A program made the position numbers and the translations under genes. Below the pieces are notes generated by a model, which was given only the letters and a program-made list of their open reading frames with translations, was not told where the DNA came from and did not search any database. Below, piece by piece: positions 40,861 to 48,325 of a DNA stretch of 64,000 nucleotides. Origin of the DNA: Polaromonas sp. (GTDB lineage: Bacteria > Pseudomonadota > Gammaproteobacteria > Burkholderiales > Burkholderiaceae_C); the NCBI GenBank assembly GCA_030654695.1, contig JAURWY010000028.1, positions 1 through 64,000 on the forward strand, read 5' to 3'. Within the stretch, counting starts at the first letter, position 1. Every line of letters starts with the position of its first letter.

Positions 40861-41592
40861 TTATGGGGCTGCCGATTGTGTGCCCAGCTGACGCGCCAAA
40901 TGCACTTGGTGCAAGGTGATCTTACGGACCTCGGCTTGGCTGGCCTGAATGTGTGCGCGCAGCAGCAAGGCGGCTTGGTCGCCGCGCTTTTGCTGTATCG
41001 CCGACAAGATTTTCCCGTGCTCTTCGTAGGTCGCGGTGATGCGTGAAGGCTGTGTGAAATCAAGCCGGCGAATCACGCGGATGCGCTCGGTCACTTCGCG
41101 GTGCACGCGGGCCATTTCAGCGTTGCCAGCAGCGGCCACCAAGGCGCAATGAAAGGCCTCGTCCCAAGCGGCGACTTCCAGCATGTCGGTGCTGCGCTGC
41201 TCGGGGCTGACCAGCCAAATGACCATGAGCGCCTCCAGCTGAGCCGCATCGACCTTGAGGGCGCCTTCACACAAGCGGTGCGCGGCAGTGGTTTCAAGCA
41301 CCATGCGCAAATCGTAAAGGTCCTCAAACTGGTTGAAGTCAAACGGCAACACGCGCCAGCCGTTGCGAAACAGCACCTCGACATAACCCTCTTGCTGCAG
41401 CTTGAACAGCGCCTGCCGCACTGGCGTGCGCGAGACGCCAAGCCGCCCGCTGATTTCAGTTTCCGTGAAGCGGTCGCCCGGCAGCAAACGGAACTCAGCG
41501 ATGTCGTGCTTGAGTTGTGTGTAAACATCTGTTGCACGCGAGGGGTGGGTCGCCACGGCAGCAACGAAGGGTGGCGTGGCGGCAGTTTGCAC
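40861..41592 (-). CDS. GntR family regulator, FCD subfamily, of the Atz-like operon
   Basis: A 243-residue regulator. The winged HTH at ~20-85 contains VYTQLKHDIAEFRLLPGDRF and GRLGVSRTPVRQALFKLQQEGY; the FCD domain follows with DLYDLRMVLE and a second half with histidines (DEAFHCALV, EEHGKILSAI) that usually bind metal and the carboxylate effector. The start is GTG. It is the last gene of the eight-gene minus-strand operon and lies 33 bp after the AtzH-like gene. A perfect CTTGTATACAAG site upstream of the operon fits its expected operator. Confidence 0.9.
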   Translation of the reverse strand: MQTAATPPFVAAVATHPSRATDVYTQLKHDIAEFRLLPGDRFTETEISGRLGVSRTPVRQALFKLQQEGYVEVLFRNGWRVLPFDFNQFEDLYDLRMVLETTAAHRLCEGALKVDAAQLEALMVIWLVSPEQRSTDMLEVAAWDEAFHCALVAAAGNAEMARVHREVTERIRVIRRLDFTQPSRITATYEEHGKILSAIQQKRGDQAALLLRAHIQASQAEVRKITLHQVHLARQLGTQSAAP

Positions 41593-41625
41593 GGGCTTAA
41601 TTTTTCAAAGAAGTGAGCATTTGGC

Positions 41626-42012
41626 TCACGCTGACGGCATCAGCAAACTCACATGCGCCGACACCACGCGCCAACCTTCGGGCGTGCGCACCCAAGTCTG
41701 GCTTTGACGCCCGCTGCGCGGGTTGCCGGCACGCTGAAACTCCACGTTGGCTGTGGCCATGTCACGGCCAAATGTGGTGATGACGGTTTTCAGCAGCACC
41801 CGATCCAGCCCCTGCGCCGGCCGGGCCGCCCGAAAGGCTTTGATCTCGTCGGCACCGTAGAGGTTTTCAGTGGCGCCGTAACGCAGCGTGTGTGGGCTGT
41901 CCCAAAACAGTTCGTCCAGCACAGCGACGTCGTTGGTCACCAAGGCTTGTTCGTAGCGTGCAAATTGAGCGCTGACTTCAGCGACAACGTCGGGCAGATT
42001 GATGGCGTTCAT
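41626..42012 (-). CDS. atzH: AtzH-like (DUF3225/HpxZ) protein
   Basis: A 128-residue protein of the NTF2-like SnoaL type: NLPDVVAEVSAQFARYEQAL, FWDSPHTLRYGATENLYG, then RGIxF-like AFRAARPAQGLDR and QTWVRTPEGWRVVSAHVSLL. The family includes HpxZ of oxalurate catabolism and AtzH, described in the Pseudomonas sp. ADP pathway as acting on 1,3-dicarboxyurea to give allophanate. It directly follows the AtzE-like gene, as in those clusters. The function is inferred from family and neighbours. Confidence 0.82.
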   Translation of the reverse strand: MNAINLPDVVAEVSAQFARYEQALVTNDVAVLDELFWDSPHTLRYGATENLYGADEIKAFRAARPAQGLDRVLLKTVITTFGRDMATANVEFQRAGNPRSGRQSQTWVRTPEGWRVVSAHVSLLMPSA

Positions 42013-42055
42013 AAAGAGGTCATGTTCAAAATGAAAGGAATCGTGCCGAGGGCCA

Positions 42056-46480: not shown

Positions 46481-46523
46481 GAAAAGCTCCTTGTGAAAAG
46501 TAATAAAGGCCGAGTGAAAATCG

Positions 46524-48284
46524 TTAATCGTTAAGCGCTTGCAAAGAAGCGATGTAGGCGCGCCAGCCGCCTAAGTGAGAAATGTCTTGCGCGTCATGCA
46601 AAGCCTCGGCTTCACAGACAAAGCCCTGCACGCTGCTGCCATCGGCCAACGTCAAAGTTCCGATACCCAAGGGCGCAGGTATCAAGGCCACAAAAGAGCC
46701 GTAATGCTGCAGCGGCATGTCCCAGACTTCCAGCGCGATGGCACTTCCTTGACCCGCCGCCACGCGCAGCAAACCCGGCTTGGGCGGTGTTGTGCCCGGC
46801 AGCGCATACAAGCGATAGTCGGCCGCCGTGCTGGCCGTGCTAACCAAGCTGGCACCGCGCTCTGTGAGTTGGCTGTTCAGCGGCATGCCCGACAAATGCG
46901 CACCGACCACGGCCACGCGCACGCTTCCCTGGTTGCTGGCCTTCATGGTCAAGCCCTTGATCGGTTGCGGCGCTGGCAGCGGCAATCCGGTTGCGCCCTG
47001 GGTCAAGCCCGTGAGGTGGTGGTAACGCTGGCCGAGTTCGGCGAGTTGCCAGTCACTGCCGCAGCGGCCAATCAAGGTGATGCCAAAAGGCAAGCCATCA
47101 GCCCGCATGGCGCTCGGTACCGAGAGCGCTGCATAGTCCAGCAAATTCACAAAGTTGGTGTACTCGCCCAGGCGGCGATTCAGCTCCACCGGAATTTGCA
47201 ACATCGACGCCACGCTGTAGTGCGTCGGTGCGGTGGGCACCAGCAACAAATCGATGTCGGCCCACAAGGCATCAGCCCGCTGGCCGAGCAGTTTGAGTTG
47301 GCTTTGCGCGTCAAACAAGTCGGCCGCGCTGTATTGGCGACCTTGCGCGATGATGCTGCGCACCGGCTCGATCACCTCAGCTTCATGCTGATCAAAAAAG
47401 GGCCGAATAGCGGCGTAGCGTTCGGCCACCAGCGCGCTGCCGTAGAGCAACTGCGCCGCTTGCTTGAAAGGCGCGAAGTCGAGTGGCACGGCGCTGCCGC
47501 CCATGCCTTGCAAGCGCTGCACGGCATCGCTGAAAGCCGCTTCGGCCAGCGCATCGCCATAAAATTCGAGCTGGTCTGGCACGCCGAATGTGAAGCTTGC
47601 GGGAAAGGCCTCGCTGGCCAAGGTCAGCTGGCGCGAATAAGCGTCCAGCGGGTCGTGGCCCATGGCGCTTTCAAGCACTTGCACGGCCGTGGCCACGGTG
47701 CAGGCAAAGATAGACACACAGTCAACGCTTTGTGCAGCGGGCAAGACACCGCGCGTGCTGATGAGTCCACGCGACGGCTTCAAGCCGACGATGTTGTTCA
47801 GCCCTGCCGGCACGCGGCCCGAACCGGCGGTGTCTGTGCCCAATGAAAAATCAACCTGCCCTGTGGCCACCACATAGGCCGAGCCAGAGCTTGAACCGCC
47901 AGAGACATAAGCCGGGTTAAACGCATTCGGCACCGCTCCATATGGAGAGCGGGTGCCGTTCAGACCGCAGGCGAATTGATCTAAGTTGGTCTTGCCAAGC
48001 AGCGCTGCACCAGCTTGGAGCAGCTGCTGCACCACTTGCGCGCTGGCATCGGCCTCAAAAGCGAAAGCTGGGCAGCCGGCAGTGGTGACATTGCCAGCGA
48101 CGTCCATGTTGTCTTTCACCGCAAACCGCAGTCCGGCCAAAGGCTGGACTGCCAGAGCTGATGCCGCGGTGCTGCTCACCAATGGCACCGTGAGCTGGTG
48201 AATCCAGGCGCAGTTTGGGTCTGCTAAAACCTGCCCTGCAGGGTCTGCGTTAGAAGCGAAATCCGAGCTTGATTCAGTGATCAT
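46524..48284 (-). CDS. atzF: Allophanate hydrolase
   Basis: Hydrolyses allophanate to ammonia and carbon dioxide. The 586-residue product has an N-terminal amidase domain with K57 (FAVKDNMDVAG), S131 (SGGSSSGSA) and nucleophile S155 (TAGSGRVPA), and a C-terminal domain from ~460 (VRVAVVGAHLSGMPLN, LEVWDMPLQHYGSFVALIP) that in AtzF and the yeast enzyme completes the second decarboxylation step. No urea carboxylase gene is adjacent, so allophanate must come from another route, here probably AtzEGH. First gene of the operon, about 30 bp downstream of the GntR-type palindrome. Confidence 0.92.
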   Translation of the reverse strand: MITESSSDFASNADPAGQVLADPNCAWIHQLTVPLVSSTAASALAVQPLAGLRFAVKDNMDVAGNVTTAGCPAFAFEADASAQVVQQLLQAGAALLGKTNLDQFACGLNGTRSPYGAVPNAFNPAYVSGGSSSGSAYVVATGQVDFSLGTDTAGSGRVPAGLNNIVGLKPSRGLISTRGVLPAAQSVDCVSIFACTVATAVQVLESAMGHDPLDAYSRQLTLASEAFPASFTFGVPDQLEFYGDALAEAAFSDAVQRLQGMGGSAVPLDFAPFKQAAQLLYGSALVAERYAAIRPFFDQHEAEVIEPVRSIIAQGRQYSAADLFDAQSQLKLLGQRADALWADIDLLLVPTAPTHYSVASMLQIPVELNRRLGEYTNFVNLLDYAALSVPSAMRADGLPFGITLIGRCGSDWQLAELGQRYHHLTGLTQGATGLPLPAPQPIKGLTMKASNQGSVRVAVVGAHLSGMPLNSQLTERGASLVSTASTAADYRLYALPGTTPPKPGLLRVAAGQGSAIALEVWDMPLQHYGSFVALIPAPLGIGTLTLADGSSVQGFVCEAEALHDAQDISHLGGWRAYIASLQALND

Positions 48285-48313
48285 GAGCGTTGCACCAACT
48301 TAAGGCATCCATA

Positions 48314-48325
48314 CTTGTATACAAG
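48314..48325. promoter_or_regulatory. GntR-type operator CTTGTATACAAG
   Basis: A perfect 12-bp palindrome located 30 bp upstream of the atzF start. Its core TTGTATACAA fits the TNGTNNACNA consensus of FCD-type GntR regulators, and such a regulator is the last gene of the same operon. It shares the GTATAC centre with the site in the other GntR-linked cluster of this window. Binding is inferred. Confidence 0.65.

What the first reader, a model, noticed from the sequence alone, without database searches (positions are those of the whole stretch)
40861..48325. Eight-gene nitrogen-compound operon with AtzEGH-AtzF enzymes, ABC importer and GntR control, but no ring-opening enzyme
Gene order from the promoter is atzF, binding protein, permease, ATPase, atzG, atzE, atzH, gntR, with overlaps or short gaps. 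AtzG-AtzE-AtzH-AtzF would convert 1-carboxybiuret to allophanate, ammonia and CO2. Yet no cyanuric acid hydrolase, barbiturase, biuret hydrolase or urea carboxylase is present, and the operon carries its own high-affinity-type importer and regulator. The imported compound is therefore probably not cyanuric acid taken in for the classical route. It could be a ureido or carboxyamide compound such as oxalurate, biuret-like or other N-carboxy-urea compounds, making this a candidate undescribed catabolic pathway.
Basis: partly seen in the sequence, partly recalled or inferred. Interest (0 to 1): 0.7.

Follow-up and report, generated by a model that had tools for sequence, protein, structure and literature searches.

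The report
Stripped-down ureide-eating operon without supplier enzyme
A bacterium carries a compact, regulated set of eight genes that looks built to take in a small urea-like compound and turn it into ammonia; it is a cut-down form of an operon that, in many related bacteria, also handles triuret and biuret, and what this cut-down form eats is not known.

Summary
The eight-gene operon is real and intact (atzF, binding protein, permease, ATPase, atzG, atzE, atzH, gntR).

The cluster type is not new: Esquirol et al. 2018 reported atzF-ABC-atzGEH clusters without a substrate. Relatives add the context. Of 62 AtzE loci with a downstream gntR, 37 have triuret hydrolase (TrtA) between atzE and gntR, and 30 of these also biuret hydrolase (BiuH) and a second importer. 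TrtA makes 1-carboxybiuret, the AtzEG substrate. AtzE and TrtA co-occur (55 of 69 AtzE genomes; odds ratio 35). So AtzGEH-AtzF here is best read as the lower half of a triuret/carboxybiuret route.

The window has a compact form without the upper half. It recurs on the AtzE tree, stands in two complete genomes, is under purifying selection, and keeps the family's operator-like palindrome, found once in this genome. No fixed residue separates compact from TrtA forms.

Most likely it imports a small ureide that AtzEGH and AtzF process without TrtA, BiuH or AtzD. Oxalurate is one lead. The substrate is unproven.

The parts
48305..48334 (.). Operator-like palindrome GCAT-N5-CTTGTATACAAG-N5-ATGC upstream of atzF (probable GntR site)
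   Evidence: 20/20 match; the only site in the genome at up to 3 mismatches; conserved upstream of atzF (or of the binding-protein gene) in many relatives
46524..48284 (-). atzF, allophanate hydrolase (586 aa, amidase plus AH_C domain)
   Evidence: TIGR02713 746 bits; 4gyr 525 bits; 51% to pADP-1 AtzF
45464..46480 (-). ABC importer substrate-binding protein (NMT1/SsuA type, 338 aa)
   Evidence: predicted fold near SsuA/TauA/NrtA/CmpA/pyrimidine binders
44610..45458 (-). ABC importer permease (282 aa)
43792..44613 (-). ABC importer ATPase (273 aa)
43495..43740 (-). atzG, small partner of AtzE (81 aa)
   Evidence: PF13318; 6c62 chain C, AtzG, 50 bits
42056..43498 (-). atzE, 1-carboxybiuret hydrolase-type amidase (480 aa)
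   Evidence: 6c62 693 bits; 67.5% to pADP-1 AtzE
41626..42012 (-). atzH, decarboxylating partner (128 aa)
   Evidence: AtzH 6bjt 172 bits; the nine pocket residues named in PMC6219798 are kept in that alignment
40861..41592 (-). gntR, FCD-type transcription regulator, last gene of the operon (243 aa)
   Evidence: a gntR of the same family follows atzE on the same strand in 62 of 80 relative loci

Best explanation
The operon is the compact form of a Burkholderiales operon family for linear ureides. GntR most likely represses the operon from the palindrome at 48305-48334 and is released by a ureide or a breakdown product. The NMT1-type ABC importer brings in a small ureide. AtzEG removes ammonia from its terminal ureido group, AtzH removes the resulting N-carboxy group as CO2, and AtzF hydrolyses the allophanate that forms to ammonia and CO2. 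In many relatives triuret hydrolase (TrtA) and biuret hydrolase (BiuH) in the same operon would supply 1-carboxybiuret and allophanate from triuret and biuret. The window's genome lacks both, so the compound must be one that AtzEGH and AtzF can take without those enzymes: a carboxylated ureide such as oxalurate, or 1-carboxybiuret made in a way not recognised here. Shown: gene content, absence of known suppliers, family context, shared operator-like site, selection. Inferred: all enzyme activities, the repressor role, the ligand.
For: Enzyme identity: AtzE 67.5% to pADP-1 AtzE, AtzH pocket residues intact, AtzF with both domains. Family context: of 80 AtzE loci from genome contigs, 62 have a family gntR downstream; TrtA lies between atzE and gntR in 37 of these 62 and elsewhere in the locus in 5 more; 1 has BiuH alone; 19 have none of TrtA, BiuH, AtzD in the locus. 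TrtA and BiuH were identified on example proteins against the solved enzymes (6xix 305 bits, 6azo 371 bits) and by signature residues (42 of 44 and 37 of 37). Of 299 family genomes, 69 have AtzE (E<=1e-120), 78 TrtA (E<=1e-75), 55 both (Fisher odds ratio 35, p 2e-28, relatedness not corrected for). The compact form recurs: 14 state changes on a quick AtzE tree, at least 9 forced by starred branches, and it stands in single-contig genomes G099 and G080 without TrtA, BiuH or AtzD. L038 keeps a truncated bmp gene between atzH and gntR, as expected of a deletion. The operator-like site is found in 19 of 27 compact and 29 of 44 TrtA loci and 0 of 3 AtzD loci, and once in this genome. All eight genes look to be under purifying selection. 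No residue of AtzE, binding protein, AtzF, GntR, AtzH or permease is fixed between compact and TrtA forms (largest frequency difference 0.45).
Against: No substrate is shown. The lack of any fixed residue difference suggests AtzE still prefers 1-carboxybiuret, which decays with a half-life of about 20 min in vitro (PMC7948467) and has no known source here. The importer is not tied to AtzE: 9 of 20 AtzE-less TrtA loci also carry it, so its ligand may be triuret or biuret, which this strain cannot open with known enzymes. An unrelated enzyme elsewhere in the genome could do TrtA's job; six isochorismatase-family genes exist (seven matches, two of them one gene), those that match BiuH at all being at most 31% identical to it over the matched part. 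8 of the 19 compact loci lack atzH at 60% identity or more, so the compact group is not uniform. AtzF has no obvious role if the substrate is oxalurate.
Confidence: 0.55

Rival explanations
1. The operon still serves triuret or biuret: the importer brings them in and an unrecognised hydrolase elsewhere in the genome opens them to 1-carboxybiuret or allophanate.
For: Same importer, GntR and operator-like site as the TrtA-bearing operons; the importer also sits in 9 of 20 TrtA operons that lack AtzE; six isochorismatase-family genes lie in the genome.
Against: No TrtA or BiuH relative at E<=1e-20. Of the three of six isochorismatases scanned, the best scores 84 bits on the BiuH model against a cut-off of 370. 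The operator-like site occurs nowhere else in the genome at up to 3 mismatches, so such a hydrolase would not be in the same regulon.
Confidence: 0.25
2. The compact operon degrades oxalurate: AtzGEH work like Klebsiella HpxXYZ (oxalurate to oxamate, ammonia and CO2) and AtzF or another amidase finishes the oxamate.
For: AtzH passes the HpxZ model (212 bits, cut-off 135). AtzE is about 52% identical to HpxY. Oxalurate is a stable, carboxylated near-isostere of 1-carboxybiuret (chemistry, recalled). In G080 and G260 an Opp importer and an HpxW-like gene lie downstream of the compact operon. The predicted binding-protein fold is near many anion binders.
Against: AtzG is far below the HpxX model (21 bits, cut-off 70). 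No HpxW at E<=1e-100 in this genome. HpxW is not clearly enriched in TrtA-less AtzE genomes: 5 of 14 against 13 of 55. AtzF with its second domain is expected for allophanate, not oxamate.
Confidence: 0.18
3. The operon is a decaying remnant of the full triuret operon with no present role.
For: The compact state changes many times on the tree; L038 shows what looks like a deletion scar; the operon is patchy in the genus (binding-protein gene in 6 of 25 genus members searched, own genome included).
Against: All eight reading frames are intact and dN/dS is 0.01-0.18 between the window and L024, L025, L028; the operator-like site is perfect; a starred compact clade of five (Verticiella, Bordetella, Achromobacter, G022) has kept the form over long branches.
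Confidence: 0.05

Closest known systems
atzDGEHF cyanuric acid operon of Pseudomonas sp. ADP plasmid pADP-1 (NC_004956)
   Same: AtzG, AtzE, AtzH, AtzF of the same families; AtzE 67.5% identical, AtzF 51%
   Different: No AtzD here; own ABC importer between atzF and atzG; GntR at the end of the operon, whereas a LysR gene precedes atzD there; no such operator-like site in the fetched pADP-1 stretch
atzF-ABC-atzGEH clusters of Rhodoferax, Variovorax and others (Esquirol et al. 2018, PMC6219798)
   Same: Same core gene order; about half of theirs have ABC genes between atzF and atzG
   Different: They report ABC transporters and amidases downstream, no substrate, and the section read does not name TrtA or BiuH; the window has gntR directly after atzH
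Triuret pathway TrtA-TrtB-BiuH-AtzF (Herbaspirillum, PMC7948467)
   Same: AtzF; the family's fuller operons carry TrtA and BiuH plus a Bmp-Nup importer
   Different: The window has neither TrtA nor BiuH and has AtzEG, which takes carboxybiuret without passing through biuret
Klebsiella hpxWXYZ oxalurate operon
   Same: HpxX/Y/Z are AtzG/E/H homologs; HpxZ model met
   Different: No HpxW found in the genome, HpxX model not met, AtzF and a different importer and regulator present

Membership tests
pADP-1-type cyanuric acid (AtzD-GEH-F) pathway | AtzE with AtzG partner | tested here: met
   TIGR02715 670 bits; 6c62 chains A and C matched at 693 and 50 bits
pADP-1-type cyanuric acid (AtzD-GEH-F) pathway | AtzH with pocket residues Tyr22, Arg46, Arg63, Arg66, Arg73, Phe94, Arg96, Gln106, Gln108 | tested here: met
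   All nine identical in the alignment, read by eye; residue list from PMC6219798, numbering matched by counting from the expressed start
pADP-1-type cyanuric acid (AtzD-GEH-F) pathway | AtzF allophanate hydrolase with amidase and C-terminal domains | tested here: met
   TIGR02713 746 bits, PF21986 175 bits
pADP-1-type cyanuric acid (AtzD-GEH-F) pathway | AtzD cyanuric acid hydrolase in the genome | tested here: not met
   PF09663: none in G000, with positive control G079
Triuret/biuret pathway (TrtA, BiuH, AtzF) | TrtA and BiuH present | tested here: not met
   No match at E<=1e-20 in G000; matching isochorismatase genes at most 31% identical to BiuH
Triuret/biuret pathway (TrtA, BiuH, AtzF) | Same GntR, operator-like site, importer and AtzGEH-F as the TrtA-bearing operons | tested here: met
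Hpx oxalurate pathway | HpxZ equivalog | tested here: met
   NF033625 212 bits, cut-off 135
Hpx oxalurate pathway | HpxX equivalog | tested here: not met
   NF033624 21 bits, cut-off 70
Hpx oxalurate pathway | HpxW oxamate amidohydrolase in the genome | tested here: not met
   No match at E<=1e-100 in G000
Urea carboxylase plus AtzF | Urea carboxylase | tested here: not met
   TIGR02712: best 553 bits of a cut-off 1304, first 441 of 1201 positions only
All of the above | Measured activity on the named substrate | not testable with these tools
   Needs purified enzymes and growth tests

The most novel reading that the evidence does not exclude
A pathway not yet described: an imported, stable ureide is degraded directly by AtzEGH and AtzF without cyanuric acid hydrolase, triuret hydrolase or biuret hydrolase. 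The full operons then combine this entry with triuret and biuret entries, and the classical atzDGEHF operon arose when AtzD was attached to this older carboxybiuret/ureide core.
Probability: 0.35. Interest if true: 0.62.

Novelty: new variant of a known kind. Interest (0 to 1): 0.45.

Why it matters
It answers part of a question left open in 2018, namely what the widespread atzG-atzE-atzH clusters do when no cyanuric acid hydrolase is near. In the Burkholderiales loci studied here they often sit in one GntR-controlled operon with triuret hydrolase, whose product is the AtzEG substrate. That makes the natural role of this s-triazine-pathway enzyme set directly testable and suggests a source for the atrazine-mineralising operon of pADP-1. 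The compact form isolates a further question: what feeds these enzymes where every known supplier is missing.

Tried and rejected
1) That the missing supplier lies elsewhere in the genome: not found for AtzD, TrtA, BiuH and urea carboxylase, nor any second operator-like site. 2) That importer and AtzGEH form a strict module apart from TrtA/BiuH: not borne out, since the importer also occurs in 9 of 20 AtzE-less TrtA loci (20 of the 23 such genomes were fetched, G209, G246 and G266 were not). One of the 20, G039, holds an AtzE fragment at its contig end, so it is AtzE-less only by the E<=1e-120 cut. 3) HpxW as a marker of the compact form: among TrtA-less genomes found beside it only in G080 and G260; also near operons in L042 and L069 (which have TrtA) and L070. 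Overall 5 of 14 against 13 of 55, no clear enrichment. 4) Residues that separate compact from TrtA forms: none fixed. 5) The binding protein folded alone gave a useless model (pLDDT 36.7); with 33 relatives 79.8. Its nearest folds bind sulfonates, nitrate, bicarbonate, PQQ or pyrimidines and do not name the ligand. 6) First operator scan with a strict core found only 7 of 59 loci; the wider consensus, taken from these same loci, reached 16 of 20 or more in 43 of 60, so those counts are partly circular. Of 300 shuffled stretches none scored above 13; 49 of 2856 tiles of 500 nt score 16 or more, and these tiles include the atzF upstream regions. 7) dN/dS outliers: the two L027 atzF values (0.39, 0.57) are taken as artefacts (its contig starts inside the ATPase gene, so 170 codons of something else matched); L024-L025 atzG is 0.42 on 67 codons and window-to-full-form pairs are as low as the compact pairs. 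8) The AtzE tree is a quick tree; the place of pADP-1 AtzE with G079 AtzE among mostly TrtA-type sequences has support 82-94, none starred. Four partial or duplicate loci (L073, L115, L118, L120) were left out of it; L066 and L117 are the same sequence. States on the tree refer to the fetched stretch only. 9) Of the 14 AtzE genomes without TrtA, not all are clean compact cases: G131's operon runs off its contig after bmp-nupB; G041 has a BiuH-level match (5e-61); G079 has AtzD; G083, G171 and G291 are incomplete or short contigs; G045 has no atzF, importer or gntR of the family by it.

Literature: five papers opened. PMC6219798 (abstract, introduction, part of methods, the AtzH-homolog section, passages), PMC7948467 (abstract, outline, passages, section 17), PMC12625717 (passages), PMC5806882 (passages), PMC5343134 (one passage). 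That TrtA with AtzGEH in one operon is not in print is not claimed: in searches (listings and those passages) I saw no such statement, but the 2020 paper on trtB (recalled) was not seen.
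Full report
Observation. The operon is as described: eight genes on the minus strand, atzF to gntR, 48284 to 40861, with gaps of at most 51 nt and two 4-nt overlaps. Pfam and NCBIfam confirm the names: AtzF, AtzE, AtzG (Pfam only), AtzH and the FCD-type GntR are over Pfam or NCBIfam cut-offs, with an NMT1/SsuA-type importer. 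AtzE is 67.5% identical to pADP-1 AtzE, and AtzE and AtzG match the solved AtzEG at 693 and 50 bits. AtzH keeps all nine pocket residues named by Esquirol et al. (against passages of PMC6219798).

The negative holds. The genome (3.45 Mb, 34 contigs, 99.85% complete) has no AtzD/barbiturase family member; the same search finds AtzD in G079, so it works. A TrtA query that also reaches BiuH in other genomes finds nothing here at E<=1e-20. The genome has six isochorismatase-family genes; those that match BiuH are at most 31% identical over the matched part, and the three that were scanned (two on C5, one on C21) reach at most 84 bits against a BiuH cut-off of 370. No urea carboxylase passes its cut-off.

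Family context. A scan of genome contigs with AtzE gave the best 80 loci of a capped list, nearly all Burkholderiales. In two of the nearest relatives (L026, L027; AtzE about 90%) and in many others, extra genes lie between atzH and gntR: a Bmp-type binding protein, two permeases, often a formamidase-type nitrilase, an isochorismatase, an ATPase, and a second isochorismatase before gntR. The first isochorismatase is BiuH (NF050097 409 bits, cut-off 370; 6azo 371 bits) and the second is TrtA (6xix 305 bits; 249 bits on the BiuH model, below cut-off) (one example protein each). The residues that the TrtA paper gives as distinguishing the two enzymes agree in 42 of 44 TrtA-like and 37 of 37 BiuH-like proteins; the two strict misses, L026 and L027, have F for M in the DMQRDF stretch. 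TrtA converts triuret to 1-carboxybiuret (PMC7948467 passages), which is the AtzEG substrate (PMC6219798). So the full operon reads as triuret to 1-carboxybiuret (TrtA), to dicarboxyurea (AtzEG), to allophanate (AtzH), to ammonia (AtzF), with biuret entering through BiuH. This reading is inference from the gene set.

How firm is the link? Among the 80 loci, 62 include a family gntR downstream of atzE. Between atzE and gntR, 37 of the 62 have TrtA and 30 have TrtA, BiuH and Bmp together; 7 have TrtA alone; 5 more have TrtA elsewhere in the locus; 1 has BiuH alone; 19 have none of TrtA, BiuH or AtzD in the locus. In a separate survey of 299 genomes of the family, AtzE (E<=1e-120) is in 69, TrtA (E<=1e-75) in 78, both in 55; odds ratio 35, p 2e-28, not corrected for relatedness. 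AtzD accompanies AtzGEH without TrtA in the fetched stretch in a few: G079, Pseudomonas helleri L077, L098, a P. putida plasmid and pADP-1. On a quick AtzE tree pADP-1 pairs with G079 inside a group that is mostly TrtA-type (support 82-94, not starred), which fits AtzD having been attached to an older operon but does not prove it.

The compact form. Of the 62 loci, 14 have the window-type importer and gntR within 600 nt of atzE with no TrtA, BiuH or AtzD in the locus; not all of these keep atzH or show atzF. Of the genomes surveyed, 14 of the 69 with AtzE lack TrtA; some of these are incomplete or differ (see Tried and rejected). G099 (same genus) and G080 are single-contig genomes with the eight-gene compact operon and without TrtA, BiuH or AtzD. 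The tree needs 14 changes between compact and TrtA states, at least 9 forced by starred branches. In L038 a truncated bmp gene remains between atzH and gntR, so loss is the likely direction there. All eight genes look to be under purifying selection between the window and the compact relatives L024, L025 and L028 (dN/dS 0.01 to 0.18). No residue of six proteins is fixed between compact and TrtA forms.

Regulation. A 30-base palindrome, GCAT-N5-CTTGTATACAAG-N5-ATGC, lies at 48305-48334 in front of atzF. It is the only such site in the genome at up to 3 mismatches. It is found at 16 of 20 or better in 19 of 27 compact, 29 of 44 TrtA-bearing and 0 of 3 AtzD-bearing loci, and not in the pADP-1, P. 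putida, Paraburkholderia or Klebsiella stretches; mostly in front of atzF or, where atzF is missing, the binding-protein gene, and in three loci also or only in front of bmp. Some loci begin after the place where it would lie, so the shares are lower bounds. That GntR binds it is inferred from co-occurrence.

What it does. The enzymes and regulator are those of the TrtA family, but nothing found in this genome is known to make their substrate. The simplest reading is that the importer delivers a ureide that AtzEGH and AtzF can take directly. Oxalurate is attractive because Klebsiella HpxXYZ are homologs of AtzGEH and because G080 and G260 have an HpxW-like gene beside the compact operon. Against it, HpxW is absent here and not clearly enriched in compact genomes, and AtzF has no clear part in that route. 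A hidden triuret or biuret hydrolase is the main rival. The binding protein's predicted fold (mean pLDDT 79.8) is near SsuA, TauA, NrtA, CmpA, PqqT and a pyrimidine binder, which is compatible with a small polar or anionic ligand and settles nothing.

AtzE-less TrtA operons. In 20 such loci, 19 have BiuH, 18 a Bmp protein, 16 AtzF, 20 a family GntR and 9 the window-type importer; 18 keep an AtzH-like protein (hand count). So AtzH-like proteins also accompany TrtA routes without AtzEG, perhaps as carboxybiuret decarboxylases (inference), and the importer belongs to the whole family rather than to AtzE alone.

Verdict. A real, apparently functional, compact variant of a known kind of nitrogen-scavenging operon; its family link to triuret degradation is well supported, its own substrate open.

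Noticed in passing
L108 (G099:C1, same genus): Compact operon in which AtzE is only 59-60% identical to the window's while atzF, importer, atzH and gntR are 73-91%: atzE seems to have been replaced in place by a divergent version.
   Followed up: no
L142 (G000:C5:26000-45000) and L144 (G000:C21:50000-66000): The same genome holds two further clusters with Liv-type importers, PuuE-like deacetylases, a dihydropyrimidinase-like enzyme, a racemase-like gene and isochorismatases: possibly cyclic ureide or hydantoin catabolism.
   Followed up: partly
L026:15154-16188 and relatives: A formamidase (NF009803, 547 bits, cut-off 406) or its homolog lies in the block with BiuH in 18 of 30 full operons; its role in triuret or biuret use is unexplained.
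   Followed up: partly
L032, L034, L050, L051: A TctC-type binding-protein gene follows atzE, in place of atzH in three of these loci.
   Followed up: no
L065, L072, L054, L081, L116, L049: Compact operons with gntR about 2 to 31 nt after atzE and no atzH between them: AtzEG without the decarboxylating partner at this place.
   Followed up: no
L037, L040, L043, L062, L063, L097: The NMT1-type importer is replaced by a five-gene Opp-type importer at the same place in the operon.
   Followed up: no
L125 (G039) and L123 (G020): AtzD inside or beside the operon together with BiuH and TrtA: entries for cyanuric acid, triuret and biuret in one place.
   Followed up: no
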